A stretch of DNA of 51,605 nucleotides, from positions 1-51,605 of IMG/VR virus record IMGVR_UViG_3300027736_000069. One strand, given 5' to 3'. A program made the translations under genes and the position numbers. This stretch comes from a virus. The notes under the pieces were generated by a model. It made no database searches and was not told the origin of the DNA. It saw nothing but the letters and a program-made list of their open reading frames with translations. Shown piece by piece: positions 796-30,238 of the stretch (position 1 is the first letter of the stretch; each line of letters starts with the position of its first letter).

Positions 796-3700
796 CTACT
801 TCTTACTGGTCCTACCTAGTAAATCAGCGAGTAGTGGCGACACTCCCTTGGGTTTAAAGACTGATTTGGGTGGTTGGGGTGTGATTTTGTCAAGATTTCG
901 TAAGCGTTCTTCCTCTATCTGCCTTGCTTTAGAAATATCAAAAGGTTTTTCTACGTTAATAGGTGTCGTAGATACTGAAGGCTTACTAACACCATTAGCT
1001 CTTGCTCCCTGACTATAAGCGTATGGGTTAGATTTCATTTGTACCAGATTCTGGAACTCCATGAAAGCTGATTTGTCATCGAGATCTGCTAACTCCTCAA
1101 AGACTCTAGCAGGAAAGGACAGAGGGGATCTGTTGTAGGGTACAATCGACTGTGCCACATCGGTTACACCTTGTAATACCTTACCGTTAACCATTTTAGA
1201 AACGCCCTTAGCAGCCGTAGCTAGGTTGTTAGACAAAGAAGACTGACCGATGCCACCAAAATTAGTAGAATCTATTACACTCTGTATTCCTTTGCTTACT
1301 CCACCCTTAGTTGTTGAGAACGTAGCGTTCATCATTGCTTGTAAAACTGGTTGGAAGGAGCCAACAAGAGGAAGTCTAGAAGCTATCCTTACTATAAGAG
1401 ATGTAGGATCTTTTTTAAATTCTTCTATGATATCTTCCATAGATCTACCGTTAGACCAATCTAGTAATAGCTTAGTTATAATTTCTGCGGTAGCAGCATA
1501 GACAAGTCCCCCAACCAAAAGACCAACTGTTCCTCTTTCGGCTGCGTTTAACACCGTGTTATCATGCCAAGCTCTCATCCAATTAGTTAAAGCGTTTGTA
1601 AGCTTACCTGTTTCGGTAAAAGACTGAACGTTCTCTACTTTGTTTAAACCAAACCCATAAGAAGATACTCTCTTTCTAATTAAGTTTTCAATTCCATATC
1701 TATATTGGGACACAACGTCATAATACAAATCTGGATCAATTGGTGGTTTTTCCATCTTACGTAAATCGTTAGTTAAATTACTAAGCTCTACAAAATCTAA
1801 CCTGTTGTGTAATGCTCCAAGTTTTCTTAGTCCCCACGCTAAAGCGTTTGCTCTTTCAGTGGAAGTAATACCAACCATAACAAGTTTAATAGCTTCAAAC
1901 TCATTGATACCGTTTCGTCTAGCAATTTCTTTAAATTTTCTTGTTAATTTCTTTTCAGCAACAACTTCAGTATAAGATTCAATTCTTAAACCATTCATCT
2001 CTTCTCTATTAGCCACATCTGACCATTCAGTTAACCATGAAACTAATTTACCGTTCTTTGAACCAGTAAGGAATTTATTAAAACCACCAACAAATCTAGT
2101 TTTTCCTAGGGAACGAACAAACTGAGTGTTACTTTGCAAACTACCGATCATAAGTGCAAACTTAGACCCCTTTGATAAGAAATTAGTAACACCACTAAGA
2201 GGACCAGTAGCTCTTTCTTTTGAATTCCAAATACTACCATAAGAAACTCCACCAAAAGCTGTATTACTTTCGCTGTTGTCACCGTTTGTCCAAGCGTGTG
2301 TATGATCTCTTTGTTGGTCTTCTAAAGCTGTAATCAAATCATCTACTTGGAATTTTATAGCTGGGTTTTTTCTATCCCATACTTTTAATAGGTTTAAAAT
2401 TACCTGAATAGTTCTAATAGGAACAGACAAACCATAACCATCTTTACTATTTTTTACTATCTCTATTAAGACTTCTGGTAAAGATGACTTACCCCAAACA
2501 ATACCTTGAAGAGCAATCATAGACCTAGCACTCTTAGCTAAGTTATCACTTATCATACCACCAGCAGAGATATTAGATGGCAATGTTCCATTAGCTTCAG
2601 CGTAAAGCCAATAAAGCCTAGTCATTCCTTCTTTAAGACTTGTGTATAAAAATTCTTTTTGCTTTACAGAGAGCTGTTGACTATTTTTAATACCATCTTT
2701 AGCAATGTTTTCAAGTTCAATAAGAACATTTACTGGTTTTGTTGTCATCTCTAGACCAGGAATAGATTGAAATGTCTCTAATACCTTGAGATCAACCCCT
2801 CTATTAAACAACCACAGTTGATAAATAGCCCTAATATCATTCCGAACATAAGCTTTAATAGTAGGATCACCCATAACTTCTTCTGGTGTTAGATTCTGAA
2901 CTGTAGTTTGAACCCTAGGATCATCATTAGGTGCTATGTCTGGTCTACCATTTATAAGTTTTCCTGAATCTCTTCTATATCTTCCAGAGTTTGCCTTGTA
3001 ATCAAGCAACTCAGACATCTCTCTGAGAGTTAATGTTTCGTTTTTTAAATATGATTGCCACTTAGGTAACATATTTGTATTATCTCCCCTAACAGTAGAT
3101 AAATATATGTCTCGATCTTCGGGACTTAAGTCAAAAAGATTCTCAGGATTTCTATAAACACGAACAGTATCACCTTCAGTAATAGTAAACACACCATCGT
3201 TAAATTGTTTACGTATTTGTGCTTTTAAAGAAGCAACACTCTTCTGCCAAGTAGTCAAACTATGTTCCGTAATAAATAAATTCTTAAGAGAAGCAGCGTT
3301 AAGTGGCGTTGTCTTACCAGCATCAGCTAAAATTCTATCACGTGTAAACAATGTGTTAACATTCTCTATATCTAAAATACCCAACACAATTAAAGTGTTT
3401 GTATCTAGGGGCATATCAGAAGAACCCTTGTTTTTTCTTGTTTTACTAATTACTCTAGCTTTTTCCCAAGCTTTTAATAGTATTTCTCTATCTGTTGGGG
3501 TCATTTCTCTAAGTTTATTGCCATCAATCTGAACTGGAAAGTGTGTTAAAGGATCACCATCAGTAAGATCTGGAGATACCCACTTTGTTTTTCTTTCTAA
3601 ACCAAAGATTTGTTTGTTCCTAACGATCTGTTCTTCTCTTAACAGAGATAATAAGTTAACGAGTGTTTTTACTTCAGCTGTATCAGCTGTAGTTTTTAAA

Positions 3701-6700
3701 GTTGTTTTTAAATCACCAATAGAAACATCTTTACCAGCTCTAAACATCTCAATATAAAGCCAAGCAACATTATTCTGGTAAGATATTTTACCAAGTTTGT
3801 TTAGTGTTTCTTCTATTCTATCAGAAAGCCTTCTTAAGTGAATAATAGAACTCTTTATCTCATTGACAGATCTCAAAACAGACCTAAGTGGAGCAGAGTT
3901 TGGAGCTACTAATGTAGAAGTAACTATACGGGTATCATCAAAAAGATGAGATAAGAAACTTACAACCTTTATTAAACTTCTAAAGGTATCTCCTGCTTGT
4001 TGTTTATGTTGAATAGCGTTTTGAGTGTTACTCATCAAAGCTCTCCACCAATTACGATTAGCTCTTTCATCTCCCCCAAAGAAGAAACTAATCCAATTAT
4101 TTTGACGAACTGAACGAACAGCCCTATCATCCATAATATCAATAAGAAGCTGTGTCTCATCTCTAGCTACAGTTGATTTATCAATTGGTGAATCCTTATT
4201 AACGTTCTCAGATAACTCAGCAGCTTTTCTAACTTCTATAGGCTTAGCCTCTAACTTGTTTTCATACTTTGAAAGCAACTCTAAAACTTTAGATGTATCT
4301 CTATGTAGTTTAACAAGAGGCTTACCTTCTTTATTTAACGTAATTCTAACAGCATCTTCTGAAATAGGAGGATAAAATTGTTGTGGACTATATGAACTTT
4401 GCTCTGTAACAACAGTTGCAGCTTCTCTATAGATTTGACTTGTGCTTTTGTATTTGGTTTTACCTTTTACACTTACCATTAAAGCTTCTTCAGATGCTTT
4501 AATTTTATCTACAGCAACCCAAAACATACTAACCACGTCTTCTGATCCAAACCTAATTCTATTCATTTCCATTATCTTAGCATTTAACATAACAAAATCT
4601 CCCCACATAACTTTAAAGCTATCTGTTATAATTAAAGCTATATCTGAAATTTCTTTGTTACCTGTTGCCTTATTAAAAGCTTTTAACAAAACTCTAAAAG
4701 TAGAACCATCGGTTCCGTTATCTCTCAAACCATCATTGCCTTCAGTAAGCATTAGGGTAATTTTATCAATTGTAGATACAGCAGGAACAACAGAGCCACC
4801 TTCAATTTTTTGTGGTGACTTAGGTTTAACTATAGGTCTAGCAACTGGTATTGTTGAAACACCATCAGGAGCTACAGCTGTATCTGGTACAACAGTAGCT
4901 GGTTTTTTTGGTAAACTTTCAAACGTAACATACGAGCCATACTGCCATTTCATTTTATCAAACACATAAGTTACACCATACGCTTGGTTTTTTCTAGAGA
5001 GAAGCATAATGGTAACACCATCAATCTCTTCTTTTTTCATTACTTCTTTAAATAAAGTAACAGCTTCCTCTTCTTTTTCTTGTCTTAAAAGGATTCTAAC
5101 TTGGTTTAATAAATCTTCTCTATCAAAAAACTTAAATGGTTTATCTATAGAGTTTAAAACTCTTTCAATATTCTGTAATACAGGATGTGTCCTGCCGTCT
5201 AAATTACCAGCAGAGTAATAAGAATCGTTGGTTAAAGACCCAACTATTTGTCTAGAGGATTTTTGTGGAACAGCTACAGTAACCACAGCTTCAACCTCTT
5301 TAGTACCTAATAGTTTTTCAGCTACACCTAAAGGAATACTTGGTGTTAAATCTCCAACAACATTACCCGTAGTTAAAACAACAGCTTGAGTAACTTCCCC
5401 TGTATTTTTTAAATTACCAACAGGAACAGCTACATCTTTTGTTTTTTCAATTGTACTTGCAGACGTTGATTCATTAACAATATCTTCTATATTTGTTTCA
5501 ACAACCTTTGCTTTTTGTTTCTTAATAACAGAAGTTAGAATAGTCTTAGGTGTTTTAGGTGCTGGGGTTGTTTGATCAAAGGATAAAGAAGAATCCTCCA
5601 TAGCAGTAGCCATAGCTGCAAGTTGATTCCTAGTTGGGGTCTTTCCATTAGTATAGCTTTCTAGCATACCTTCTGGTAACTTTGCTTTAGCAGTGTCTTC
5701 TAACATTAATCTAACTCTTTTTTTAATATTTCCTACACTAAAACCAGAGCCAAAGCGAAGGGTTCCAGCTGTTGATATCTCATCATATGTTTTTCCTGCT
5801 ACAATTAATTGTTTAATATAAAGATCCTTTTCGCTTTTAAAGGAACTGAATTCAATAAGACCTAAAGCATCTCCTAATAAACTCTTTACTGATTGTGATT
5901 TAGCATCTGTTCTAAGTGAGCTTCCTCCAATAGAAGATACAATAAGTGATTCATCTACAACCGCCTGTATTTTTGAATCAACAACACCTAGATTTCCTGT
6001 ATTTTTACTACGGGAATACTCTTTACTAAACTGCTTAAAAGAATCACCTTTACTTTTAATAGCTTCTTGAAATGATTCTGTTATTAAAGGTACTTGTTCT
6101 GTTCTTTTTTTGTTTGCTTCTACTATTATCTCATTCTGTGTTTTCTTAAAATCTTCCCAGTTTGTTTTGTTTATACCAGAAGATCTTAATTTATTATCTT
6201 TCTTACCATCATCCATTAACTTATCAAAAACAGATTTTCTTAATCTGTTTAAGAAACGTTCCTTATTTATAAACTGACCCTCTGTGTCTTTAATTATTCT
6301 TTGAAGCTTCATATAAAAATTACCAACTGAATCATTAAAAGCATCTGAAAAATTCTGAGAATCTAATACAGTTGAAGATAATTTACTTCTTAATGATTCT
6401 CTTACCTTAGTTTCTAATGAAGAATCCTTTAAAATTTCTAAGGCTGCACTTTCTGTTATAGGTTCAATAACATCACCAGCAATTTCTTTTAGTGCTTTGT
6501 TTAAACCCATATTAATTCTAGTTACAGTACTTATTGTTTTTGGCGATGATAGTTTATTTACTTCGTTTATTGTTGTTGTTAAACCCTCTGGAGAAACAAC
6601 CCACGCATCTTCTGAAACTTTTTGTAGTACAAGACCACCAATATCTTCAAGAGAGGTAAGATCATTAAGTGTTACTTGCATCTCTTTAGATAACCCAATA

Positions 6701-9700
6701 GATTTATTTAGTAAATCTATAAATTGTTTCTTAGTGAGTGCTTGACTACCATCCTCTTTTGTCATTTTAGATATCTCATACATTCTACCTAAAATATTAA
6801 ACACTTCGTTTTTGTTTTGAGGGGTTTTAAAAACATTATCTTTTATACTTGACTCAAAACTTGACTCAAAATCATCAGATCGAATAGCCCCGAATGTATC
6901 TGAACGACCGCCAAATGTTTCTGGTATTCCTTTTATATAAGACGGTAAGATACGATCACTACCTAAAACCTCAGCAGCATAAGCTTCAGATACTAAAGAA
7001 TAATCTGCTGATACAAACTCTTCACCTGTATCTAGAATATAAAGAACATCTGAATTTTTACCATCTTCTATAAACAACTTACTTAGTTTCTTTAGGTTTG
7101 GGTTATTAACAGAAAAACCTTCAAGTTCAACACCATCCTTAATAAGCTTTTTGATATTACCGTTAGAAGCAATACCAAGATTATCTTTTAAAGGAGAGTA
7201 TTGATATAAAATACCTGAGTTTATTTCTTTTAATGCGTTGTTTACTGTTGTAAGTTGAATAGTACTAGGGTTATTTGCGTATACTATATTAAGCTGTGTG
7301 TTAATTTTAGTATCTGTTTCAAGTATTTTAATTAAATTAGCGGGTGAGAAGTATGTGTTGTTTGACACAAAGTTTACCATGTTAGGCGTATTTAAAAAAT
7401 AACTTAAGTAGGTGTTAGTAACTACAGATTCATTAGAAGAATTCTCTTTTAAGGTAAAAGCTTCTTTTAAATCAGCATAGGTAATATAACCGTGTCCTTG
7501 TTCTAGTTCTCTTAGAGTTGCTATAACAGGAACACTGAGGTTACTGTCATGCCTTTCAGCAGAATTAAGCAACAGATCTTTTAGTGTTCTTGAAACACTT
7601 TCGTTTGTTAGTGATACACCTAAAGATTTAAAATCATTTTTTACACCTTCTAATATGTTTTTAGATTCTACTTCTGAACTAATGTAATTTGTAAAAACAT
7701 AAGACTCATCTCCATCATCAAGTGCTTCTTTAGGTGCATTAAAAAAGACTTGCTTTCTTCCTTTGTGGAAAATACCTTTTTCAACATAAGTTAAGGATAG
7801 TAAAGGATCTAGTGTTGGTTGCTGACGTACAGCTGCGTCTGGATCTTCATCAACAGCCTTAACTAAAACAATCATTTTTTCTTCCCATGTCATACCAGGA
7901 AGTAATAAATCGTTATACTTTTTTGTTTCAAGACCGTTTCTTTGTAAGGCAAGCATGAACTCACCCTCAATATTAGTTAAATACTTTAAAGTAACCTCAT
8001 AGTTTTCTTTAAACCGTTCCATAAACAGAGCATCTCTGTTATTGTTTTTCATTTCAAAAGTTCGGGGCTTTGTACTAAACTCATAGTTTCCAACTGTTTT
8101 ATCTAATAGAGTACGTGCCTTTTCTATTAGTGTTACCTTTGCGTATTTGCGACCAAGGTAAAAACTATCTCCCTCTAACTTAGTATTTATTAAAGCATCT
8201 ATTGCATAGATATCATCTTTAAACAATCTATTTAATAACTGGAACTCTTCGTGAGTTATTTCTCCTATAAAATCTTTTAACTTGCTGTTTAAATCAGCTA
8301 ATACTTCTTTACTATTTTTGGTAAAAAGTACATACTTAAGTTCTTCTTTGTCTACTTTTTTCACAGCAGCAAGAACAGTATCTACAATTTGTTGTCTTCT
8401 TAGTAGTGGTTTTGAAGATTGTTCTAACTCATGTATAACATTTTTAACAATCCCATATACAGTACTTTCATGGATAGCTTTAGATGCTGAAAGACGCTCA
8501 TATAATTGCATTACATCCGCAGCAATATTACCAACCATCTCTAATAAAGCAGCCTGAATAACACCCTTGTTTTTTCCTAACTTAGAAAGGAATAAAGAAT
8601 AAGCTACTTCATTTACTAATAGATTACTAAAAACTTCAGCAAAAAGTTCTGCTGTGTTACTTGTTGTATAATTAACATTTTCTTTAGTAGCTCCAGCTAC
8701 TTCTATTAACTCTGCACGTAAATTTGGCATATCCTTAAACAACCTTCTTAGTCTAAACAAAGAAGTACCAGTAGCGTATAACTCATAAGCATGTCCAATC
8801 TCATGGGCAACAATTTTAACTCTGGTTAGGTTTCTATATTTCATCAAATTACCAATTGTAATTTCTCCTGTTACATTGTTAATTTGAGATCTTTGACCAG
8901 GAGTAATAGACATTCTTCTATCAAAACGTAAGGTAACTGTTGCAGCTAAGATAAAGTTTCTATCAGCTTCTGATATTAAACCGCTATCAACAAGTGTTTG
9001 AATTTGGTCATAGTGTGCTTTTACTACATCAACATATCCCTCAGCGTGTGTTAAAAAAGATGAAGGAGATTCTAATACACTAATTTGAGCTGCACGTTGT
9101 GCCTTTGTTAAAGCCCTTCCTTTTAATTTACCTAAAGCAATTCTTTTTATTGTAGCAACAACACCTGTTCCACTTAACATCTTTTCAATATCATCCAATA
9201 AACTTAAACGTTTCTCTGCACTTGCCACTACATTATCTGGTGTACTCTGTAAATCTTTTGCTATTGCTACAGTTATTGTTTGTACTTTTTCGGGAGTAGA
9301 AGATGAAACATCTAAAGGAGCTTTGGCTTGTTCTGGGTTATTACGACTACCTGTAGCTGCATCTAAAATACTAATCGCATCTTTTCTTGCTTTTTCTGAT
9401 ACACTAGAAATTCTTTCAACTCTGTTCTGTGTTTCCAGTTTAATTTTTTCACCAGCTAGTTGAGATTTAATATCCGCATGTATTTCTTCTCTACTTAAAA
9501 CAGGTCTCTCTAATAAAATAGGGGTAGTGTTTTCTTCGGGTCTTGTTAAAAATAAAGGAGAATCTTCTACTCTAGTAATAGATGGCTGAATTGGTGATGT
9601 GTTTTTACTTCTCTCAATACTAGCTATATTATCTGTTAGTATTATAGCTTTATCAATAGCTATTATTTTCTGTGAGGGAGTTAATGCATTATAACGACCA

Positions 9701-11556
9701 CCTTCTGATACTGCATCTAAGGCTAGAAGAGGAGAAGTTAATACCTCTGAAGAAGCTGTTCTTAAAGCAAACGAATCTACTGACTCATCCTTAGCTATTC
9801 TACTATTAGGGTGGATAGGTGAGTTGTTAATATCATCTCTTAATCCATTATTTACTTCAACACCTTCAGCTTGTTTTCTTAGGTTAGCGTTTAGTCCTTC
9901 TGGTGTTGGTTCTTTACCAGCTAACACAGCTTTATTTACCGTATCAAAATTGGGATCAACTAGTGCAATATCTTTTCTGTTAAAAAACTCGTTTATATTC
10001 TTTTTAGATTTTTCTATTGCTGATAAACTTGTAGGGTTAAACATCCTACGAAAACCTTCACCAAGACCAGCCATACCTAAATGAAGACCAGCACCAAACA
10101 AACCTCCAACTAAAGCAGAATGTAAAACTTCTTTTGAGTTAAAATTAGTAGCAACCTCTGGATTTAACCCATATACACTGTTAGCAAAAGCTAAGTTATT
10201 GTTTTGTGCTACTGTATTATGGACTGTCATAAAAGCAGCTCCTTGTCCAAAATGCCAAAGTGTTGGTCTAATAATACCCCACGTTTCAGCATACTTAGGT
10301 AAGCCACCAAAACCAACATGCCAAGCTGTACTAACAACTCTAGATAAAACTTCGGTAGCTCCAATACCAACTTCAGCAACGCCTACAGCAGCTCCAGCAG
10401 CTGTACCATAGACAGGAACAGCTGAACCTACCACAGCTTTTGTAATCAAAGACTTAGCAATATCCGCACCTATAATAATAGGTGTGTCTAGATTATTAGC
10501 AAACATTCGCCCAAACGATTTTAACTCCTTAGCGTACCAACGTGGACTAATAAAACTCCTACCAGGATCATATGATTGTAGTTTGTTTTCTATGTTTGTT
10601 TTATTTATAATAGTCTGTAGTTTAAACATAGCAGCATTTTGGTTTTCTATTCCATAGAAACTATCAGCTGTTATATCTAAATCTAATAAACCGTTTCTAA
10701 CGGTGTCGTTTAAAGCTACTGTATCATTAAACCATCTTATATGGTTAAAATTATCATCCTTTTTATTTAATAATTTAACAAGATCGGCTTTATCACCTAG
10801 GTAAACGTTATCAGTATAAGACCTAATAGCTTTAACAGGATCGTACTCAGGAAAGAAATCCCAAACGCCCAAAGAAAACCCTGTGTTTATATTAGCTTTA
10901 GGAGCTGGTTCTATACCCAACACATCTTTAACCATAGAGTAGTTAGATATTAGTTGTTGGGATGCAAATGAAACAAGGTCTCCAGCCCAACTACCTGTTA
11001 GCTTACTATATTTAGGGTATGTGAATGTATCTGTGCCTGTTTGACGAGGTGTATCTAACACATAACGCATGTAAGCTAATTCGTCACGTTGTTTTTGTAT
11101 AACCTTTATAGCTTCAGGTTGTTTTAACTCTTCTTCTGTTGCTGATTTTAACAAATCACCTAAACCCAAAGACTTAACAACATATAAATCTTCTGATATT
11201 TCATTTCTAGGTAATAAAACTTCTCTAAAAGATGGAAGGTTTAACATAGAAGTTATTATTAAACGCTTGGATGGATCAATACCACCAGATACAAGAGATT
11301 CGTTTAGAACTGTGTTGTTTAAAGCAGCTAGTAATGACTCATTTGTAGAAGCTTCATCGCCTTCTATAGGTAATCTAACTCTACTAGACCAATTGTATGG
11401 GTCACTCATACTAGATATAGATGTATCTAATAATAAATTATTGGTTTGGGCTTGCACGGGTTGAAATTCGACGCTTTCTAAATATTTGTTTAAATATAAC
11501 GGCGTTCTTTCATTCTGTTCCTTATCCACAAAACGATCTGTATATAATAAATCCAT
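796..11556 (-). CDS. Giant internal virion (ejection) protein with zincin-type HExxH motif, 3,586 aa
   Basis: The last and largest gene of the late region. It follows two other candidate ejection-protein genes, so it is probably the T7 gp16-like DNA-ejection protein that enters the host envelope. A zinc-metallopeptidase signature HEIGH sits at residues 918-922, with a downstream ELFAEVF segment supplying a plausible third ligand, Glu974. Glycine/alanine-rich hydrophobic stretches lie near residues 365-410 and 485-505. A membrane-like segment (VGLLVGGLVYAATAEIITK) lies near 3340-3365. The middle is largely hydrophilic and Ser/Thr/Lys-rich. No lytic transglycosylase motif was recognised. The ATG at 11556 lies just after the stop of the preceding gene. 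The architecture resembles phage 'polyvalent' proteins carrying peptidase domains; this is inference. Size matches N4 virion RNA polymerase, but the polymerase motifs were not found. Confidence 0.8.
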   Translation of the reverse strand: MDLLYTDRFVDKEQNERTPLYLNKYLESVEFQPVQAQTNNLLLDTSISSMSDPYNWSSRVRLPIEGDEASTNESLLAALNNTVLNESLVSGGIDPSKRLIITSMLNLPSFREVLLPRNEISEDLYVVKSLGLGDLLKSATEEELKQPEAIKVIQKQRDELAYMRYVLDTPRQTGTDTFTYPKYSKLTGSWAGDLVSFASQQLISNYSMVKDVLGIEPAPKANINTGFSLGVWDFFPEYDPVKAIRSYTDNVYLGDKADLVKLLNKKDDNFNHIRWFNDTVALNDTVRNGLLDLDITADSFYGIENQNAAMFKLQTIINKTNIENKLQSYDPGRSFISPRWYAKELKSFGRMFANNLDTPIIIGADIAKSLITKAVVGSAVPVYGTAAGAAVGVAEVGIGATEVLSRVVSTAWHVGFGGLPKYAETWGIIRPTLWHFGQGAAFMTVHNTVAQNNNLAFANSVYGLNPEVATNFNSKEVLHSALVGGLFGAGLHLGMAGLGEGFRRMFNPTSLSAIEKSKKNINEFFNRKDIALVDPNFDTVNKAVLAGKEPTPEGLNANLRKQAEGVEVNNGLRDDINNSPIHPNSRIAKDESVDSFALRTASSEVLTSPLLALDAVSEGGRYNALTPSQKIIAIDKAIILTDNIASIERSKNTSPIQPSITRVEDSPLFLTRPEENTTPILLERPVLSREEIHADIKSQLAGEKIKLETQNRVERISSVSEKARKDAISILDAATGSRNNPEQAKAPLDVSSSTPEKVQTITVAIAKDLQSTPDNVVASAEKRLSLLDDIEKMLSGTGVVATIKRIALGKLKGRALTKAQRAAQISVLESPSSFLTHAEGYVDVVKAHYDQIQTLVDSGLISEADRNFILAATVTLRFDRRMSITPGQRSQINNVTGEITIGNLMKYRNLTRVKIVAHEIGHAYELYATGTSLFRLRRLFKDMPNLRAELIEVAGATKENVNYTTSNTAELFAEVFSNLLVNEVAYSLFLSKLGKNKGVIQAALLEMVGNIAADVMQLYERLSASKAIHESTVYGIVKNVIHELEQSSKPLLRRQQIVDTVLAAVKKVDKEELKYVLFTKNSKEVLADLNSKLKDFIGEITHEEFQLLNRLFKDDIYAIDALINTKLEGDSFYLGRKYAKVTLIEKARTLLDKTVGNYEFSTKPRTFEMKNNNRDALFMERFKENYEVTLKYLTNIEGEFMLALQRNGLETKKYNDLLLPGMTWEEKMIVLVKAVDEDPDAAVRQQPTLDPLLSLTYVEKGIFHKGRKQVFFNAPKEALDDGDESYVFTNYISSEVESKNILEGVKNDFKSLGVSLTNESVSRTLKDLLLNSAERHDSNLSVPVIATLRELEQGHGYITYADLKEAFTLKENSSNESVVTNTYLSYFLNTPNMVNFVSNNTYFSPANLIKILETDTKINTQLNIVYANNPSTIQLTTVNNALKEINSGILYQYSPLKDNLGIASNGNIKKLIKDGVELEGFSVNNPNLKKLSKLFIEDGKNSDVLYILDTGEEFVSADYSLVSEAYAAEVLGSDRILPSYIKGIPETFGGRSDTFGAIRSDDFESSFESSIKDNVFKTPQNKNEVFNILGRMYEISKMTKEDGSQALTKKQFIDLLNKSIGLSKEMQVTLNDLTSLEDIGGLVLQKVSEDAWVVSPEGLTTTINEVNKLSSPKTISTVTRINMGLNKALKEIAGDVIEPITESAALEILKDSSLETKVRESLRSKLSSTVLDSQNFSDAFNDSVGNFYMKLQRIIKDTEGQFINKERFLNRLRKSVFDKLMDDGKKDNKLRSSGINKTNWEDFKKTQNEIIVEANKKRTEQVPLITESFQEAIKSKGDSFKQFSKEYSRSKNTGNLGVVDSKIQAVVDESLIVSSIGGSSLRTDAKSQSVKSLLGDALGLIEFSSFKSEKDLYIKQLIVAGKTYDEISTAGTLRFGSGFSVGNIKKRVRLMLEDTAKAKLPEGMLESYTNGKTPTRNQLAAMATAMEDSSLSFDQTTPAPKTPKTILTSVIKKQKAKVVETNIEDIVNESTSASTIEKTKDVAVPVGNLKNTGEVTQAVVLTTGNVVGDLTPSIPLGVAEKLLGTKEVEAVVTVAVPQKSSRQIVGSLTNDSYYSAGNLDGRTHPVLQNIERVLNSIDKPFKFFDREDLLNQVRILLRQEKEEEAVTLFKEVMKKEEIDGVTIMLLSRKNQAYGVTYVFDKMKWQYGSYVTFESLPKKPATVVPDTAVAPDGVSTIPVARPIVKPKSPQKIEGGSVVPAVSTIDKITLMLTEGNDGLRDNGTDGSTFRVLLKAFNKATGNKEISDIALIITDSFKVMWGDFVMLNAKIMEMNRIRFGSEDVVSMFWVAVDKIKASEEALMVSVKGKTKYKSTSQIYREAATVVTEQSSYSPQQFYPPISEDAVRITLNKEGKPLVKLHRDTSKVLELLSKYENKLEAKPIEVRKAAELSENVNKDSPIDKSTVARDETQLLIDIMDDRAVRSVRQNNWISFFFGGDERANRNWWRALMSNTQNAIQHKQQAGDTFRSLIKVVSFLSHLFDDTRIVTSTLVAPNSAPLRSVLRSVNEIKSSIIHLRRLSDRIEETLNKLGKISYQNNVAWLYIEMFRAGKDVSIGDLKTTLKTTADTAEVKTLVNLLSLLREEQIVRNKQIFGLERKTKWVSPDLTDGDPLTHFPVQIDGNKLREMTPTDREILLKAWEKARVISKTRKNKGSSDMPLDTNTLIVLGILDIENVNTLFTRDRILADAGKTTPLNAASLKNLFITEHSLTTWQKSVASLKAQIRKQFNDGVFTITEGDTVRVYRNPENLFDLSPEDRDIYLSTVRGDNTNMLPKWQSYLKNETLTLREMSELLDYKANSGRYRRDSGKLINGRPDIAPNDDPRVQTTVQNLTPEEVMGDPTIKAYVRNDIRAIYQLWLFNRGVDLKVLETFQSIPGLEMTTKPVNVLIELENIAKDGIKNSQQLSVKQKEFLYTSLKEGMTRLYWLYAEANGTLPSNISAGGMISDNLAKSARSMIALQGIVWGKSSLPEVLIEIVKNSKDGYGLSVPIRTIQVILNLLKVWDRKNPAIKFQVDDLITALEDQQRDHTHAWTNGDNSESNTAFGGVSYGSIWNSKERATGPLSGVTNFLSKGSKFALMIGSLQSNTQFVRSLGKTRFVGGFNKFLTGSKNGKLVSWLTEWSDVANREEMNGLRIESYTEVVAEKKLTRKFKEIARRNGINEFEAIKLVMVGITSTERANALAWGLRKLGALHNRLDFVELSNLTNDLRKMEKPPIDPDLYYDVVSQYRYGIENLIRKRVSSYGFGLNKVENVQSFTETGKLTNALTNWMRAWHDNTVLNAAERGTVGLLVGGLVYAATAEIITKLLLDWSNGRSMEDIIEEFKKDPTSLIVRIASRLPLVGSFQPVLQAMMNATFSTTKGGVSKGIQSVIDSTNFGGIGQSSLSNNLATAAKGVSKMVNGKVLQGVTDVAQSIVPYNRSPLSFPARVFEELADLDDKSAFMEFQNLVQMKSNPYAYSQGARANGVSKPSVSTTPINVEKPFDISKARQIEEERLRNLDKITPQPPKSVFKPKGVSPLLADLLGRTSKK

Positions 11557-11563
11557 ATATTCC

Positions 11564-14500
11564 TTAAGCTTTGAAGTTTGTTAAATAACCTGAATCAACA
11601 ACAGCAATTTGTTTTGTTAACTCTAACATTAATTCTTTAATGGTTAACCCAGTTTCTTTAAATAGCACCTTATCTGATTTATAAAGCACACCCAAAGCCT
11701 TATATATTAAACCATAGTTAGGATTTGAATTACCAAACACACTTGGAAGGGGTAGGTTTGGGTCAAATGATTTAGCTTCTGGGTCTATTTGTCTTAGTTT
11801 ACCCTGAAAATCTTTTTCACCAGCCGTATCCAACCATGTAATAAATGAATCCATTTCTTTTTTTGAAGAGTTAGCATTTAATGGTTTTAACTGAGGGTTC
11901 TTTTTTTTCTGATCTTTAAAATATTCAAGTTTTATTTCAGCTATATAAGCTGGTAATTCTGACCCACTCCCTAACGTTGAATACATATAAGCAAGATCAC
12001 CCTTTTTTTGTTCATCTGTAGATTCAGTACCTACAACAGACATAAAACTATCGTTGGATGCTAACGCATTAACTATTGCATTACCGAATAACTTTCTGTA
12101 TTTTTCTTCTTCTTTAAAATTTGCACTGTTTTTTGTGAAGTCAAATGTTTTTTCTGACTCCCCATTAAACCCTTGAACTGTGTGTGTGAGTTCGTGTGCA
12201 TAAAGTGAATCAAGTTTTTCAGTATCCAACATATTATCATTTCTGTTTATATCATAACCATATTTAGTATTGTTTAAAATTAAATCTGCTTTTGTTATTC
12301 TATCTTCTGGGTTTAAAACAGTACTATCAAAAGAATTTGGATTAACTACAGGTGCTTGTTTTATTACACCCGCAATAAAAGCATCTGGGTTTTGTGTTCC
12401 AAACCCTTCTTGTGGTCTATCTGTTTCAAATACATCTATATATCTTGAAGCAGCAGTATAATCAGGAAGTATGTATGGGATATTAGATATAGTAAAACCA
12501 GCTGGTAGTAACTTTGAAAGAGGAAACTTTTCTTGTCTGTCCATAGCTAAACCAAACATAGTAGCCGTTTCTTCTCTACCATAAACCTTAGTATAAACAT
12601 CACTTAAACTTTGCACACCTAAATAACTAAACTTATAAGGACTTTTTTTATTGTTATCAGCCCACTTCCTTAACTTGTTGTAATAAAAACCTCCAGCTGC
12701 ATCACCAGAATTAAGTTCTGTAATACCCCCTACTTGTTTATCAAAAACAGGGTTAAATATATTTTCAATTAAATTTATATCTGTAAAATTGTAACCACTA
12801 ATTCCATTATTTTTTTCAACATAGTTTACTTTTGGAGAACTCCACTTAAAACCAGCAAAGAAATTTGGATTCCCCTGTGAGATTCGTTCTTGAATATCCA
12901 TAGCTACTGAAACTTGTTCTGGTGTAGCTGAAGAATTAGCTTGAGGATCTCCAGCTAACATTTTTCCTATGATTGTATGACGAAGAAACCGATCATTGTT
13001 ATACTCATTACTAGCATATTTTTTATTGTCTTTAGTTAGATCTAACTCAAAACCACCATAAAGTTGTCTTTGTTTTGGTGTAATCTCAAAACTAAAATCA
13101 TTCTTGGGAATATCTAGGCGGGGTATAGCTGACATATCTTGCCCATTATCATCATACGTCTTTCCACTTGGGTCTTGATTTGTCTTGCTTAACATATACA
13201 AACGAATAGCTTCAGCTTTTGCTTGTATCTTTACTTCCTGTGATGTAGTTTTATAACGTGGGTTTTTAACTAAAGAGCCATCTGCTGAAGCAATCACAGC
13301 TGCTTTATCATTTGATAAAAACCAATTCTCTTCTGTTTTGTTTGGAGGTCTCATATAAAAATCTAAGAACTTTTCTTGCTTATCTTTGTTGTATTTTACA
13401 GCCATTGTTTTTAACACATCTAAAGCTTTAATAACAGTTGTCTTTATTTTTCTTGGTATGTTTGCTTCTTCTGTTTTTTGTAGAACAAGAGTTGGAAGAG
13501 TACTTCCCTCTTTTTCCCATTCTCCTGACATTAACCCAGATAAGACATCTTCACCAAATAAAGTTTTTAAAAAAGCCTTAGATGCTTCTTCTTTAGTTGT
13601 GTTGAGTACTGTATTTAAAGGAGTTCTATCTCTATTTTTTAACTCTTCTTTTGTAGGATTATCGTTTTTCCAGAAAGATAATCCAGTTCTATTTAAGAAT
13701 TCTCCTAAGCTTTCTTCTGTACCAGAAGCATGGACTACATCCCACAGGGTAGTCCAAACTGAGGCAACTGATTTAAGATCATCTGTTAATAAACTCCAAG
13801 TTTTATCGGACGCTATTTGTTCTGGTGTTTTACCAATATTACTAGCTCCGTTTTTAATACCTGATTTTTCTACCATCTTTAAAGTTTCAATTACTTTAGT
13901 AGATAAAAATTCTTCATCTGTTCTTTTGCCATTTATATCTAAAGAGTTTTTTACACCAACGTTATTAAAACCAATCTTTTGGTTGAATGACTCAAAGCCT
14001 GAGACCCCTTCATCCCCACGGGTACTGTTTCTTTCTAAGTCTATAACAACATCTGCTAATTGTTTTCTCTTACTAAGAGGGTTTGTAATTAAAGAACTTG
14101 ATGTGTTTTCTCTATAGAAAGGTTTATCTTGTGTAGAAAAATACTCAATTGTTTGAGATGGATCAACGACAGTAAATTTATTTAGATCAACTGCTTTAGA
14201 GTCACGGGGAAAAGCATAGTATTTATCTGAAGTTTTTTCTTTATAAACAAGCAAATCGTTATCAGTTAACAGCTCGTTAATAACTCTAGTAAACTCAGGT
14301 GAACCTGGCTTCCATAAGATTAAACCAGCCTTAGGTCCTGTGTAAAGCATGTCTGGTTTCTTAGGCTGTGCTTCTGAAGTAGTAACTAAATCTCCATTCT
14401 TAGCAACAGCATCTCTAAACTTTTTAACATCCATAAATTTTTTAGGGCTAGCTTTCCACTCTTCTAGTGCTTGTTTCTCGTTATCTTCTACCTTTCGTAC

Positions 14501-17389
14501 AGTAGTTCCAAACGAAATCTCGTTCACAGATTCCTTATAAGAAGCGAGATCGTAGTTTTCTTCAAAAGCTTTATTATTACTTGCAACTGTTGATATAGAA
14601 TCCATCAAAGCTAAGTATTGTGATAGGTTAGTATATCCATTTTTTTCTCCATGTTTAAAAATAATAGAAAGATTATCCCTAGAAAACAACTCACCTTCTT
14701 TTTGTTTTTTATCAGTTGGTGTTTTTTCAATAGGTCCTAGATTTTCTATAATGTTTCTAAGGGGTAATGCATATCTTACTGTTTCATTAATTGCTGTAGA
14801 GTTAAGTTGTAATGCTCTTATAAAACCAGGTAGGTTAGATATTGCAGTATCGTTTTCTATTGGCTTCCAGTTATTATATAACTCAAAAGATTTAGATGGT
14901 ACTTGATCTAGTAAGTTATCTATATTTATGTTTTTATCTCGCCTAGGAAATGAATCATTTTTTAAAACAGTAGTACTAGAGTGATAGTTTCTTAATGTAT
15001 CTTTAAGCTGTGCTTCTATAAAAACTTGGATACTATCATTTAAACCATCTACACTTGTTCCTGACGATCTAGCTATTGTGTTTCTACCTACAACTAAAGC
15101 AGCTTGTCCTTCTTTGTTAATTGCTTTGTAACCATTTTTAATTGATCTGTTACTTGTACTAACAAACCCACCTTGAATACCTCTTGCTGTAGGTATGTTC
15201 ATTAAGTTACCTTTAGTATTAGAAGGAATTTCTATAAGAACAAGAGGAACTCCTCCATTATTAGATGATATCATATCGTAATCTGTAGTATCATAATCCC
15301 AAGTCCAACCAGTAGCTTCTGGTATATCATTATAAATAGCTATTGCTCTTTCTAATTTAATTCTAGGGGTGTCTTTAAACACTCTTCTAGCAGCTGGAAA
15401 ATAATGTTCTTGGATTTGTGGGTTCATAGCAACTACAAAGCGTAAAATAGATGCATCTGGTATTGGTGTACTAACTTTAACTCCTTGTTTATCTGTAGAA
15501 ACAGAGCCATGAGAATCAATATAAGCCCTAAAAATTTCAAGATCAACTGGCGATCCATTAAAATTATCAGCTAATGTTTTATATTTTTCAAATACAGTGT
15601 TTTCACTATCACCCTCAACAATACCAGATTGGAAGTTACCTCTTAGTGTAGCAATACCAATCAGCTTTGTTGGATCTTTTGTTAATTTTGTTTTAAGGCT
15701 ATCTCTTTCTTCTACAGTACCTTGAGCAAATTTATTTAGCTGTGAAATTATAGGAGAAGAAAGTCGTGAAAGATTATTCATAGAAGGAGAAACATGTATA
15801 ACACCATCAATATTTATAACACCGCTTCTCTCTAGATGAGCTTCTAAAGTTTGAGTTACTAAATCTGTAATAGCTTTGTTTTTATCTTCCTTAGTAAAAC
15901 TATCTTCATTAGTTGGTCTATTAATAACATCAGAAGAAGTCATAGCATTTAATACAACTACCATCAAAGGTTTAAAAGCTGGGTTGTAATTAACAAAAGA
16001 TTGGAGTGTACCATCTTCTACATTTGAATCTTGAAAGTTTGCATCAATATCAAATGTTGTTAGGTTGTTTAATAGATTTCTATTTTTTAAAACCTTAGAC
16101 ATAGTGTTTATAGCTAGTATGTATTCAGGTTTGTTTAGTGCTGGTAATTCTAAAGATATGTTTGTGGGGTCAAATGTACTATATCCTTCTGGTCGATAGG
16201 ATAATTGTGTCTTGCCAATACTATCAACAACCTTTACATTTTGTTCATTATACGGGCTTCTGGTATTCTCTAACACTTTTTGTATACCAGCTTCAGGTAG
16301 ACTGTACTGAGCTGAGAATGCCCATTGAGATAACTTAGCAACCTCAGCTGCGTTTAGACCAGTTGTTGAAGCAAACACCTGAGCTGTTTCTGGTGGCATG
16401 TTTTGTAAAAGTTGAGTTGCATATACTACTTCAGATCTAGATGCTTCGTTATCTAACACACGTTTGAATAGTTTTGTTGTGTTTGGTGTTAATATTTTAC
16501 CATTAGGTGATATAGAATACTTTAAATCAAGTTGAGCTACTGTTCTTATCACAGTATTACTAGCATAATCCATATTAAAATCTTTGTTTATCTTACCTTC
16601 AGGTGTTAATAATTGATTTCCTTTATCATCCACAGAAGCTACATCATCTCCAAGAAGACCCTTAACAGAGAATAAACCAGATAAATAAGGTTTGTTAGGA
16701 ACAGCATTCATCTGTTTCTCTGACATTTCTTTATTAAAAACAACACCCGACATTGGATCAACCATAAGAGAATTGTTGTTTAGTTTTGCAGCTGCTGCAA
16801 CTTGTTTTCTCATTTCATAAGCATTGTTTATTAACTGATAACTTTTATTAGAAATTGTGTTATCAAGTTCTAAACTAGATAACCTAGCTTGCATAGAAAC
16901 CTTTCTCCATAAAGGAGATTCTTTACTAATGTCAGCATCTGTTGTAGTAATTTTATTGTAATAATCTTTACCAACAATACCTTGAGATTTTTCAACTAAA
17001 TCATCTTGAATCTTTCTATATTCTATTGGTAAAGTTTTTTCGTATAGGTTAAACTTAGTAAAATCACCAGTCTCTCTAGCCTCAAGTAAGAGAGACTGAC
17101 CATGTATATTTAAAGTTTCAACTTTTTCTGTATTAGTTTTACCTAATAAATCTAAAGCTGATGCTTGTCCTGTTATGTTATCTTCTAAAACCATACCATA
17201 TATTTGCTGAGCATTCTTAAAAAAGCTTTCACCTAAAGCACCCCAAGCAATACCAGGATCAATACCAACTAACTGATTACCAAAAGTAACTTCTCCTTCT
17301 CGGTATACACCCGTGTTTTCTGGTTCTTCAAAAGTAATTCTACGGGGTTCTTCAAAGACTGTTTGTATACTAGGTTTAATTAAACTCAA
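11564..17389 (-). CDS. Large internal virion (ejection) protein with HExxH zincin motif, about 1,941 aa
   Basis: Second giant protein, between a smaller ejection-like protein and the 3,586-residue one. Near the C-terminus a HELTH zinc-peptidase motif occurs at about residues 1732-1736. About 75-80 residues further on comes an ELPAYIAEIK segment that could provide the glutamate ligand. The rest is hydrophilic with no domain I recognise. The frame has no early ATG. A TTG at 17389, one base after the upstream stop and 8 bases after AGAAAG, is the start I prefer; a TTG at 17428 would add 13 residues. Position suggests a T7 gp15/gp16-type role in DNA ejection, with proteolysis replacing or joining peptidoglycan cleavage. 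That function is inferred; the motif is seen. Confidence 0.75.
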   Translation of the reverse strand: MSLIKPSIQTVFEEPRRITFEEPENTGVYREGEVTFGNQLVGIDPGIAWGALGESFFKNAQQIYGMVLEDNITGQASALDLLGKTNTEKVETLNIHGQSLLLEARETGDFTKFNLYEKTLPIEYRKIQDDLVEKSQGIVGKDYYNKITTTDADISKESPLWRKVSMQARLSSLELDNTISNKSYQLINNAYEMRKQVAAAAKLNNNSLMVDPMSGVVFNKEMSEKQMNAVPNKPYLSGLFSVKGLLGDDVASVDDKGNQLLTPEGKINKDFNMDYASNTVIRTVAQLDLKYSISPNGKILTPNTTKLFKRVLDNEASRSEVVYATQLLQNMPPETAQVFASTTGLNAAEVAKLSQWAFSAQYSLPEAGIQKVLENTRSPYNEQNVKVVDSIGKTQLSYRPEGYSTFDPTNISLELPALNKPEYILAINTMSKVLKNRNLLNNLTTFDIDANFQDSNVEDGTLQSFVNYNPAFKPLMVVVLNAMTSSDVINRPTNEDSFTKEDKNKAITDLVTQTLEAHLERSGVINIDGVIHVSPSMNNLSRLSSPIISQLNKFAQGTVEERDSLKTKLTKDPTKLIGIATLRGNFQSGIVEGDSENTVFEKYKTLADNFNGSPVDLEIFRAYIDSHGSVSTDKQGVKVSTPIPDASILRFVVAMNPQIQEHYFPAARRVFKDTPRIKLERAIAIYNDIPEATGWTWDYDTTDYDMISSNNGGVPLVLIEIPSNTKGNLMNIPTARGIQGGFVSTSNRSIKNGYKAINKEGQAALVVGRNTIARSSGTSVDGLNDSIQVFIEAQLKDTLRNYHSSTTVLKNDSFPRRDKNINIDNLLDQVPSKSFELYNNWKPIENDTAISNLPGFIRALQLNSTAINETVRYALPLRNIIENLGPIEKTPTDKKQKEGELFSRDNLSIIFKHGEKNGYTNLSQYLALMDSISTVASNNKAFEENYDLASYKESVNEISFGTTVRKVEDNEKQALEEWKASPKKFMDVKKFRDAVAKNGDLVTTSEAQPKKPDMLYTGPKAGLILWKPGSPEFTRVINELLTDNDLLVYKEKTSDKYYAFPRDSKAVDLNKFTVVDPSQTIEYFSTQDKPFYRENTSSSLITNPLSKRKQLADVVIDLERNSTRGDEGVSGFESFNQKIGFNNVGVKNSLDINGKRTDEEFLSTKVIETLKMVEKSGIKNGASNIGKTPEQIASDKTWSLLTDDLKSVASVWTTLWDVVHASGTEESLGEFLNRTGLSFWKNDNPTKEELKNRDRTPLNTVLNTTKEEASKAFLKTLFGEDVLSGLMSGEWEKEGSTLPTLVLQKTEEANIPRKIKTTVIKALDVLKTMAVKYNKDKQEKFLDFYMRPPNKTEENWFLSNDKAAVIASADGSLVKNPRYKTTSQEVKIQAKAEAIRLYMLSKTNQDPSGKTYDDNGQDMSAIPRLDIPKNDFSFEITPKQRQLYGGFELDLTKDNKKYASNEYNNDRFLRHTIIGKMLAGDPQANSSATPEQVSVAMDIQERISQGNPNFFAGFKWSSPKVNYVEKNNGISGYNFTDINLIENIFNPVFDKQVGGITELNSGDAAGGFYYNKLRKWADNNKKSPYKFSYLGVQSLSDVYTKVYGREETATMFGLAMDRQEKFPLSKLLPAGFTISNIPYILPDYTAASRYIDVFETDRPQEGFGTQNPDAFIAGVIKQAPVVNPNSFDSTVLNPEDRITKADLILNNTKYGYDINRNDNMLDTEKLDSLYAHELTHTVQGFNGESEKTFDFTKNSANFKEEEKYRKLFGNAIVNALASNDSFMSVVGTESTDEQKKGDLAYMYSTLGSGSELPAYIAEIKLEYFKDQKKKNPQLKPLNANSSKKEMDSFITWLDTAGEKDFQGKLRQIDPEAKSFDPNLPLPSVFGNSNPNYGLIYKALGVLYKSDKVLFKETGLTIKELMLELTKQIAVVDSGYLTNFKA

Positions 17390-17390
17390 T

Positions 17391-18452
17391 TTATTTACTT
17401 TCTGGTAAAATATCTTTATATTGAACAATAGCTTTATATATTGTTTGTGCTAATTGTTTATCTGTTTTTACACGACCAGCTTTCATTTCTCCACGAATAC
17501 CGTTTGCTATGTTTTCAGTAAGTGTTTTTGTAGGAGACATAGCAAAGGCTGTGTTCCAATCATCCATAACAAAATCACCCTTTAATAATAAATCCTCAGC
17601 TATGGATTCTCCTGTTTGTTCTTGGCTTCTAATTTTGTTTCGACTTGAAATTAAATTACCTTCTATTGATTTTAGAATAATAGGTGGAGCAAGTTTCCTA
17701 ACCAAGGATTGTTCTTCTAAAGAGGGGGCTGAGAAATCTTCTTGGTTATACACGTCTTGTCTATTAGTAATATTAACAGACGGTATAAACTTGTTTTCAT
17801 AAGTATAAACACCAACCCTACCATTCTCAACTTTGGATATATCCATAAGATTTAATTGTTCTAATTTCATAACATCATTCACATGGGAATCTACAGGAAT
17901 ATCTGGGTCTAACTTAGACTTTAACATAAAGGTAGACATACGATCATCTAAATTTTGTGTATATACTTTTTGAGCTTTACTATAATTACTATTAGCAACT
18001 GTTGTTGATAACTGAGCAAGTATATTATTAAGCTCTTGTTTAGCCCAAGCAGGAACAACAGATAATTTCTCACGTAAAAAAAACTCTTGTTCTGATTTAC
18101 TAGTTATATACGACATTTCTTTTAGAGGTAAATCTACGAAATCTCTTTTAGCCCCAACTTTACCATCTGGATGCATCTTTTCATACTCTTCCCAATAAAG
18201 TTCTTTAACACTATCAGGTAAACTTTGTACATCAACTTGCTTTTTCCAATAAGCAAACCTATCGTTTTTATTTTTAGGATACATTCCTTTACTAACACTT
18301 GTTATGTTTTCTAATTTGCTTGTTGCGTCTTTATTAAACGCCTTGCTTATTGTTTCAGGATCTAATGATTCCTGTTCCTTAAGCTTAATTGGGTCTGACT
18401 TTGTTTTTAAAACTAATTTTTCTAACGCTAAATATGATTTGTTTTTAATCAA
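17391..18452 (-). CDS. Putative internal virion protein, about 353 aa
   Basis: Hydrophilic, Lys/Ser/Glu-rich protein with no recognised domain, located between the gp14-like gene and the first giant ejection gene. By order it would fit the small ejection-protein slot of T7-like phages (inference). No ATG is available near the 5' end. A TTG at 18452 overlaps the upstream TGA stop (TTGA), matching the start-stop overlaps common here, and lies 11 bases after AAGGA. A GTG at 18461 would add three residues but sits only two bases from the same AAGGA. Its stop is followed one base later by the likely TTG start of the next gene, so the two are probably translationally coupled. Confidence 0.7.
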   Translation of the reverse strand: MIKNKSYLALEKLVLKTKSDPIKLKEQESLDPETISKAFNKDATSKLENITSVSKGMYPKNKNDRFAYWKKQVDVQSLPDSVKELYWEEYEKMHPDGKVGAKRDFVDLPLKEMSYITSKSEQEFFLREKLSVVPAWAKQELNNILAQLSTTVANSNYSKAQKVYTQNLDDRMSTFMLKSKLDPDIPVDSHVNDVMKLEQLNLMDISKVENGRVGVYTYENKFIPSVNITNRQDVYNQEDFSAPSLEEQSLVRKLAPPIILKSIEGNLISSRNKIRSQEQTGESIAEDLLLKGDFVMDDWNTAFAMSPTKTLTENIANGIRGEMKAGRVKTDKQLAQTIYKAIVQYKDILPESK

Positions 18453-19102
18453 TGTAACCACGTTCCTTCTGCACCATATTGAAGTTGACCAGCATACCCA
18501 GCACTTGCGCCAGAAATACCAGCTTGAATTAATCCAGATGTTAAAGCTGATCCAGAGGTATCAGCAATACCTCCCATAGAAGGTATAAACATAGTTTGTT
18601 CTTGGAAGTTAAAATCCCTACCTTGTAATCTATTGTTATAGTTTGTTTCTACATCACGTAAAGATGATGTGTAGTTTGTTTTTAAAGCTATCATATTACT
18701 CTGCATAGATGAGAGGTTTTGACGAAGGATAGCTCTAGCTGTACCTGATGTATTAGATAGATGTCTAACATTTAGAGTAGAAAGAAAGGCTGCGTTTACA
18801 GTAGCAGATTCTTTAGATAGAGTTCCTTTCTTATTCTGGAAATCAACATCTAAAAAATTCTCCGCTATGACTCTTTCTTTATTAGCTGATCTTTCTATAC
18901 CAGTATTTCTTTCAAGTCTTGCTTGAAAGTTTCTCATTATCTGTCTATTGTTTGCATCTGTTTGCCACTGCGCTCTAAAATTAGCATTGTCTTGTGCTAT
19001 CTTAGCTGCTGCTGCTTGAGCTGAAGCTGCGGAAGAAGCACCAAATGCTCCTGCAATTCCCCCAGCCAAAGCCATTCCACCCATTGCAATTGCTACACCC
19101 AT
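18449..19102 (-). CDS. Internal virion protein, T7 gp14-like, 217 aa
   Basis: The N-terminus (MGVAIAMGGMALAGGIAGAF) is a glycine/alanine-rich hydrophobic segment. It is followed by an Ala/Gln-rich helical region and then an Asn/Arg-rich body with several 'NRQ/NNR' segments. This layout is typical of the small ejection protein gp14 of T7-like podoviruses, which forms a channel in the outer membrane; I assign it on layout and position, not on a defined motif. It is the first of four consecutive candidate ejection genes. It overlaps the next gene's TTG start and begins three bases after the stop of the sulfotransferase-like gene. Confidence 0.7.
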   Translation of the reverse strand: MGVAIAMGGMALAGGIAGAFGASSAASAQAAAAKIAQDNANFRAQWQTDANNRQIMRNFQARLERNTGIERSANKERVIAENFLDVDFQNKKGTLSKESATVNAAFLSTLNVRHLSNTSGTARAILRQNLSSMQSNMIALKTNYTSSLRDVETNYNNRLQGRDFNFQEQTMFIPSMGGIADTSGSALTSGLIQAGISGASAGYAGQLQYGAEGTWLH

Positions 19103-19104
19103 TA

Positions 19105-19617
19105 TTAAAACTCCTTTATAAAATCTATAATTTTGTTAATATCTTTATTTAAATCTTCTGTGTAAACTCTTAATACATCCTTATGTGAACAAAGTAGTTC
19201 ATTAACACTACTAGTATATTCATCTACAAGACTATCAATTGTGTTACTTATATTATTATCAGAAAAAGAATCAGAGTTAGAAAGATTTAAATACATAGGT
19301 AAACTAAGTTCGTCTTTTAAAACCTTCAACATACTTTGTTTTTGGGATTCTTTATCTCGTCTTTCTAAAACAACAATTTTAAATACCTTAGAAAAATCAA
19401 CACAAGATAACTGATGACTCCATAGTTTAACTATAAAATTACCGTTATCAATAAAATCTTCTCTTGGGTCTATCTCATAATAACCCAAGGGGTTATGCTC
19501 TGGTATTAATAAATCTTGTATAAACTTATGTCCCATAACAGGCAATCCAGCATTAACTAAAGATTGCATAACAAAAGATGTACCTGTTCTAGGACCTAAG
19601 CCAGTAACAATATTCAT
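19105..19617 (-). CDS. Sulfotransferase-like P-loop protein, 170 aa
   Basis: The N-terminus MNIVTGLGPRTGTSFVMQSL matches the 5'-phosphosulfate-binding loop of PAPS-dependent sulfotransferases (consensus PRSGTSF/L). A later FKIVVLERRDKESQKQS segment resembles the 3'-phosphate-binding 'xxRxP..S' region. At 170 residues it is shorter than most full-length sulfotransferases (about 250-300), so it may be a reduced enzyme or only a P-loop relative. The ATG overlaps the TerL stop (ATGA), indicating coupling with the packaging gene, and the ejection genes follow. Placement among virion genes suggests modification of a virion or host-surface component, or simple cargo; both are inference. Confidence 0.65.
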   Translation of the reverse strand: MNIVTGLGPRTGTSFVMQSLVNAGLPVMGHKFIQDLLIPEHNPLGYYEIDPREDFIDNGNFIVKLWSHQLSCVDFSKVFKIVVLERRDKESQKQSMLKVLKDELSLPMYLNLSNSDSFSDNNISNTIDSLVDEYTSSVNELLCSHKDVLRVYTEDLNKDINKIIDFIKEF

Positions 19618-29823: not shown

Positions 29824-29854
29824 AATAAATTTTTCTTTCTTTGTTAAGCTATAA

Positions 29855-29887
29855 TAAGCCCCCAAGAGTTAAACTCTTGGGGGCTTA
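29855..29887 (-). terminator. Strong 16-bp hairpin, copy 2 (terminator or processing site)
   Basis: TAAGCCCCCAAGAGTT pairs perfectly with AACTCTTGGGGGCTTA around a single base. The minus-strand exit (TTATAGC) is only weakly U-rich, whereas the plus-strand exit reads ATTTTTAT, so it may work in both directions or as a processing site. It is nearly identical to the hairpin at 30239-30271. Confidence 0.75.
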
Positions 29888-30207: not shown

Positions 30208-30238
30208 GATAAATTTTTCTTTCTTTGTTAAGTTATAA

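What the first reader, a model, noticed from the sequence alone, without database searches (positions are those of the whole stretch)
796..17389. Two adjacent giant ejection proteins, both with HExxH zinc-peptidase motifs
HEIGH (residues 918-922 of the 3,586-aa protein, with Glu974 as likely third ligand) and HELTH (about 1732-1736 of the 1,941-aa protein, with ELPAY downstream) are seen directly. T7-like phages usually carry a lytic transglycosylase in gp16; none was recognised here. Delivering proteases into the host envelope with the DNA would be a different entry strategy, or the motifs could serve virion maturation.
Basis: partly seen in the sequence, partly recalled or inferred. Interest (0 to 1): 0.65.

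Follow-up and report, generated by a model that had tools for sequence, protein, structure and literature searches.

The report
Zinc-protease domain in giant ejection protein
This T7-like phage carries a giant protein, probably injected into its host with the DNA, that contains a zinc-protease domain related to one in the injected RNA polymerase of phage N4; the same domain sits unremarked in published structures of ordinary phages, and a second suspected protease in the neighbouring protein could not be confirmed.

Summary
In the 3,586-aa gp16-like protein, HEIGH (918-922) lies in a real, conserved zincin domain (about 799-1041). Giant gp16s (3.5-5.1 kaa) of uncultured relatives share it, at three different places between common N- and C-terminal blocks. 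Ordinary gp16-type ejection proteins have it too, including PhiM1 gp48, solved in the virion (8VB2) but described as endolysin-like. H, E, H, a Tyr and a Glu are invariant in 18 aligned sequences; the third ligand is Glu970, not Glu974. An AlphaFold model of the PhiM1-type member has the zincin core; after 8VB2 itself its best match is the HExxH domain of N4 virion RNA polymerase (Z 9.8), then, far weaker, lethal factor (Z 4.3). This is the known "polyvalent protein" metallopeptidase theme, here in T7-type gp16. HELTH in the gp15-like protein has no detectable homologue: undecided. The domain does not replace the transglycosylase (one gp16 has both) and one giant relative lacks it. PhiM1 gp48 and N4 vRNAP carry it inside the virion, so I favour action after ejection, on its own chain or on host proteins. 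Activity is untested.

The parts
796..11556 (-). gp16-like giant ejection protein, 3,586 aa
   Evidence: homologous giant proteins in the same gene order in relatives
8434..9162 (-). zincin (MPTase-type) domain, residues about 799-1041
   Evidence: profile match 799-1041 (this sequence is in the profile); hhalign to relatives and to PhiM1-type domains
8791..8805 (-). HEIGH, residues 918-922: two predicted zinc ligands and the general base
8668..8670 (-). Tyr963, invariant, seven residues before Glu970
8647..8649 (-). Glu970, predicted third zinc ligand (not Glu974)
10048..10785 (-). N-terminal shared block of the giant protein, residues about 258-503, Gly/Ala-rich and hydrophobic
   Evidence: shared with L029, G017 and G015 gp16, weakly with G030
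1135..1980 (-). C-terminal shared block, residues about 3193-3474, with a membrane-like segment near 3342
11564..17389 (-). gp15-like protein, 1,941 aa from TTG
   Evidence: residues 17-122 and 626-743 (1,954-aa numbering) align with G002 gp15
12182..12196 (-). HELTH motif in the gp15-like protein, function undecided
17391..18461 (-). 356-aa protein conserved next to gp15 in the clade
18449..19102 (-). gp14-like protein, 217 aa
   Evidence: weak Pfam T7_gp14 match, E 0.77; 54% identical to the G002 protein
19614..21326 (-). large terminase, used to find the clade

Best explanation
The 3,586-aa protein is a T7-gp16-type ejection protein with an inserted zincin metallopeptidase domain of the kind found in N4 virion RNA polymerase and other injected polyvalent proteins. 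It is packaged with this domain in place, leaves the head with gp14 and gp15 when DNA enters, and the zincin works in the periplasm or cytoplasm: it cuts the giant polypeptide itself, freeing the large variable segments between the two shared ends, and/or host proteins. Shown by sequence comparison and modelling: the domain, its ligand residues, its family, its variable position. Inferred: packaging in this phage, timing, zinc binding, catalysis and substrate. The HELTH region of gp15 is left out of this explanation.
For: Seven of eight complete giant gp16s of the clade carry HExxH, and the three position groups are homologous by profile comparison (E 3e-4, 6e-6, 8e-7; unrelated segments 0.04 or worse). 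Whole-protein comparison finds three main shared blocks: N-terminal block, zincin, C-terminal block. The PhiM1-type domain matches the window-clade profile at 2.2e-7 (controls 0.07 or worse). H, E, H, Tyr and Glu are invariant in 18 sequences. A profile that includes the window finds three solved ejection proteins, 8vb2 (its own kind), 23sg (1.2e-14) and 9sfn (1.2e-9), then lethal factor (0.013). The AlphaFold model of the PhiM1-type domain (pLDDT 78) shows helix, three strands, active helix with HExxH, Glu helix; matches are 8vb2 Z 13.3, N4 gp50 residues 2124-2357 Z 9.8, lethal factor Z 4.3. Timing: the domain is resolved in the mature PhiM1 virion, and N4 vRNAP is packaged unprocessed (PMC11440229; PMC5512222).
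Against: The window's own domain modelled poorly (pLDDT 57) and its searches gave no clear match, so the fold is carried over by homology. G005 keeps the C-terminal block but has no HExxH. No substrate or cleavage site is known, and the PhiM1 paper reports no zinc or protease activity.
Confidence: 0.6

Rival explanations
1. The zincin matures the giant protein before or during head assembly, so that the virion holds fragments small enough to leave through the portal.
For: P1 DdrB, which has such a domain, is processed before packaging (PMC5512222). The giants are about three to four times the size of T7 gp16. In the terL-sampled and isolate loci HExxH was seen in 6 of 9 gp16s of 1,500 aa or more and in 0 of 26 below 1,450 aa.
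Against: PhiM1 gp48 (1,263 aa) and its relatives have the domain at normal size, gp48 is resolved with it in the mature virion, and N4 vRNAP is packaged whole.
Confidence: 0.2
2. The zincin is an injected effector that cleaves a host protein and does not act on its own chain.
For: The nearest match outside phages is a toxin-type peptidase; Iyer 2017 proposes this as one possible role.
Against: No host target is known; the domain recurs in phages of unrelated hosts, as a generic role would.
Confidence: 0.25
3. The domain is a structural remnant without activity.
For: It is absent from many gp16s and from G005.
Against: All ligand residues plus a Tyr are invariant across sequences only 15-20% identical, which a dead domain would not be expected to keep.
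Confidence: 0.1
4. The HELTH region of gp15 is a second, independent zincin, perhaps of eCIS-core type.
For: Expected 0.003 motifs by chance; weak eCIS_core match over 19 residues, E 0.04.
Against: The only exact HELTHTVQ found in IMG/VR is in an eCIS-core-like protein whose flanks differ; no detectable relation to the gp16 zincin; no homologue in viral or genome contigs; region not found in G002 gp15.
Confidence: 0.3

Closest known systems
HExxH domain (C1, residues 2124-2375) of phage N4 virion RNA polymerase gp50
   Same: Same fold by comparison with the PhiM1-type model (Z 9.8), HExxH, inside a ~3,500-aa protein injected with DNA
   Different: N4's is fused to an RNA polymerase in a Schitoviridae phage; here it sits in a T7-gp16-type protein of a phage with a separate T7-type RNA polymerase gene (47814-50285)
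PhiM1 gp48, tetrameric ejection protein, residues 268-528 (PDB 8VB2)
   Same: Homologous domain by profile (2.2e-7), same zinc-site residues and Tyr, same ejection-protein role
   Different: Normal-size gp16; the authors call the domain endolysin/exotransglycosidase-like
Polyvalent-protein MPTase domains (Iyer et al. 2017, PMC5512222)
   Same: HExxH helix, Glu helix, three-stranded sheet, variable position in huge injected proteins
   Different: The passages read there do not describe T7-type gp16 proteins; no further enzymatic domain was recognised here
Anthrax lethal factor peptidase domain (Pfam ATLF)
   Same: Weak sequence (E 0.0077 and 0.013) and fold (Z 4.3) similarity
   Different: Below Pfam's cut-off; a phage virion protein, not a toxin
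T7 gp16
   Same: Gene order and role as the last, largest ejection protein
   Different: T7 gp16 is 1,318 aa with an N-terminal transglycosylase (PMC8954989); none seen here

Membership tests
Zincin-like MPTase of injected (polyvalent) proteins | HExxH with a downstream Glu ligand conserved in homologues | tested here: met
   invariant in 8 and 18 sequences
Zincin-like MPTase of injected (polyvalent) proteins | core of N-terminal helix, three strands, HExxH helix, Glu helix | tested here: inconclusive
   seen in the model of the PhiM1-type homologue; the window's own model is too poor
Zincin-like MPTase of injected (polyvalent) proteins | several unrelated enzymatic domains in the same polypeptide | tested here: inconclusive
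   no other domain recognised by Pfam or PHROGs
Zincin-like MPTase of injected (polyvalent) proteins | zinc binding and peptidase activity | not testable with these tools
   needs protein
T7 gp16-type ejection protein | position after gp14- and gp15-like genes, largest of the set | tested here: met
T7 gp16-type ejection protein | sequence homology of the C-terminal region | tested here: inconclusive
   E 0.011-0.012 at best, no better than between two accepted gp16 groups
T7 gp16-type ejection protein | N-terminal lytic transglycosylase (present in T7, not in all gp16s) | tested here: inconclusive
   no SLT match in the window protein; L113, a PHROG-recognised gp16, also shows none, so the feature does not define the family
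Lethal-factor family (Pfam ATLF) | match above the Pfam cut-off | tested here: not met
   16.4 bits against 27.4
eCIS core domain (PF13699), for gp15 HELTH | match above the Pfam cut-off over most of the domain | tested here: not met
   14.5 bits against 22, 19 residues only

The most novel reading that the evidence does not exclude
An N4-vRNAP-type zincin is a recurrent, movable module of T7-type ejectosomes across Autographivirales, unrecognised in a solved structure, and in this clade it processes giant 3.5-5 kaa gp16 cargo after entry, so that the ejection machine doubles as a multi-effector delivery protein.
Probability: 0.4. Interest if true: 0.75.

Novelty: new variant of a known kind. 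Interest (0 to 1): 0.55.

Why it matters
It links the T7-type ejectosome to the injected-peptidase theme known from N4, suggests that a domain in a published virion structure was given the wrong function, and points to phages with solved virion structures (PhiM1 and those behind 23SG and 9SFN) in which the role of an injected zincin can be tested directly. The giant gp16s, with a zincin at three different places between constant ends, suggest that ejection proteins can grow into cargo carriers.

Tried and rejected
The window's zincin domain alone (5-row alignment) gave a poor model with no clear Foldseek match; lethal factor and a zinc peptidase appear at Z 3.3 among unrelated rows. Single-protein searches for relatives of gp15 and gp16 failed because these genes diverge fast; terminase alignments solved this. 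The Pfam adenovirus-fibre hit and other sub-threshold hits were taken as chance. A link between gp16 size and zincin looked strong in the terminase sample, but PhiM1-type phages of normal size break it. Further HExxH motifs (G002 2046, L034 2115) are not detectably related to the family. The adenosine deaminase match to gp15 (E 0.0097) was set aside: it runs across the HELTH motif without matching its His or Glu and has no support from other libraries.

Full report
What is in the sequence. The window is a 51.6-kb record of a divergent T7-like phage: its RNA polymerase, terminase, nozzle and capsid proteins match Autographiviridae at roughly 20-40% identity. On the minus strand, after the terminase, lie a gp14-like protein (217 aa), a 356-aa protein, a 1,941-aa gp15-like protein and a 3,586-aa gp16-like protein. 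Both motifs are present as described. Neither giant has a convincing Pfam or PHROGs match, and no lytic transglycosylase is seen.

Finding relatives. Direct searches failed, so I used alignments of the terminase. They gave a clade of IMG/VR contigs at 45-70% identity. Fetched neighbourhoods show the same gene order with giant gp16s of 3,489-5,139 aa. HExxH occurs in seven of eight complete ones: window 918, G002 919 (and 2046), G015 3658, G017 3311, G020 3331, G030 1564, G032 1557; G005 has none; the partial L029 has one at 738. Shuffling gives 0.001-0.09 expected each.

One domain in three places. The motif regions fall into three position groups, yet profile comparison shows they are the same domain (E 3e-4, 6e-6, 8e-7, against 0.04 or worse for unrelated segments). 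In the alignment H, E, H, one Phe and one Glu are invariant. Comparing whole proteins, the main blocks shared across groups are an N-terminal one (window about 258-503), the zincin and a C-terminal one (about 3193-3474). The N-terminal block is well supported for L029 and weaker for the others (E 6e-4 to 0.02). The zincin therefore sits at different relative positions between common ends.

Beyond the clade. In the terminase-sampled and isolate loci, six of nine gp16s of 1,500 aa or more carry HExxH and none of 26 below 1,450 aa do (my count of complete ones), including the isolate Limnohabitans phage YIMV22061 (609). L123 has both a transglycosylase (residues 14-122) and the motif (572). Whether all of these belong to the same family was not shown; L123 and YIMV22061 match the profile weakly. 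A profile of the clade domain pointed to PhiM1 gp48, 8VB2 (E 0.098). PhiM1 has HEAAH at 385-389, Tyr442 and Glu449. The zinc-site residues are invariant in six diverse PhiM1-type proteins, HExxH is present in all 18 PhiM1-type IMG/VR loci, and the PhiM1-type profile matches the window-clade profile at 2.2e-7. A profile of 18 sequences including the window then matches 8vb2, 23sg gp10 (1.2e-14) and 9sfn internal virion protein (1.2e-9), followed by lethal factor (0.013). A crAss-like phage and a Helicobacter prophage giant protein carry the signature too.

Fold. The model of the PhiM1-type domain is good (pLDDT 78) and has helix 50-64, strands 70-75, 86-89 and 96-102, helix 118-141 with HExxH at 126-130, and helix 188-197 with Glu190. 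This is the core described for polyvalent MPTases (PMC5512222). After 8VB2 its best matches are the N4 vRNAP region 2124-2357 (Z 9.8 and 9.6), then lethal factor (Z 4.3), with other zinc peptidases further down. The N4 region is the C1 domain whose HExxH its authors note (PMC12633501). The PhiM1 authors called residues 268-528 endolysin/exotransglycosidase-like and do not mention zinc or protease in that context. Fold transfer to the window rests on profile homology, because the window's own model is poor. I did not measure the metal-site geometry in 8VB2.

gp15. HELTH has no homologue in any collection searched; G002 gp15 aligns at 17-122 and 626-743, then weakly near 1030-1073, and has no HExxH. 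Its only family resemblance is a sub-threshold eCIS-core match, and the one exact HELTHTVQ elsewhere in IMG/VR is in an eCIS-core-like protein with different flanks. It remains a motif.

Mechanism. Shown: domain, ligands, family, variable position. Inferred: presence in the virion of this phage, zinc binding, activity, timing, substrate. Because gp48 holds the domain in the mature virion and N4 vRNAP is packaged whole, action after ejection is preferred; whether on its own chain or on host proteins is open.

Novelty. The domain type and its presence in injected proteins are known (Iyer 2017; N4). What appears new, within the papers I could search, is its spread through T7-type gp16 proteins, its unremarked presence in solved ejectosomes, and its shifting place in 3.5-5 kaa gp16s.

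Noticed in passing
L155 (PhiM1), residues 385-449 of the 1,263-aa internal core protein; PDB 8VB2: HExxH/Tyr/Glu zincin signature inside a domain published as endolysin-like; same family in 23SG gp10 and 9SFN.
   Followed up: yes
L161 (crAss-like cr125_1) and L162 (Helicobacter prophage): Large proteins with the same zincin signature; the cr125_1 frame has 34 in-frame stops under table 11, perhaps a recoded stop.
   Followed up: partly
L094:6020-18823 (G005 gp16): A 4,267-aa gp16 with the clade's C-terminal block but no HExxH.
   Followed up: partly
L092 gp16 (7426 onwards) residue 2046; L034:11830-19275 residue 2115: Further HExxH motifs (HEVMH, HEGFH) not detectably related to the family.
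   Followed up: partly
window 29638-29865 and 29923-30249: Two small Pro-rich ORFs with near-identical starts and ends (GAYYxLTKKEKFIM ... SRDGWYGRLYG), apparently a duplication.
   Followed up: no
window 36791-38707: Ribonucleotide reductase with a B12-dependent (class II) insertion-domain match in a T7-like phage.
   Followed up: partly
window 19105-19617: 170-aa protein that by eye reads like a small sulfotransferase or kinase, between terminase and gp14; no Pfam match.
   Followed up: partly
window 40235-40711: 158-aa protein with His and Cys patterns resembling permuted NlpC/P60 peptidases by eye; no Pfam match.
   Followed up: partly
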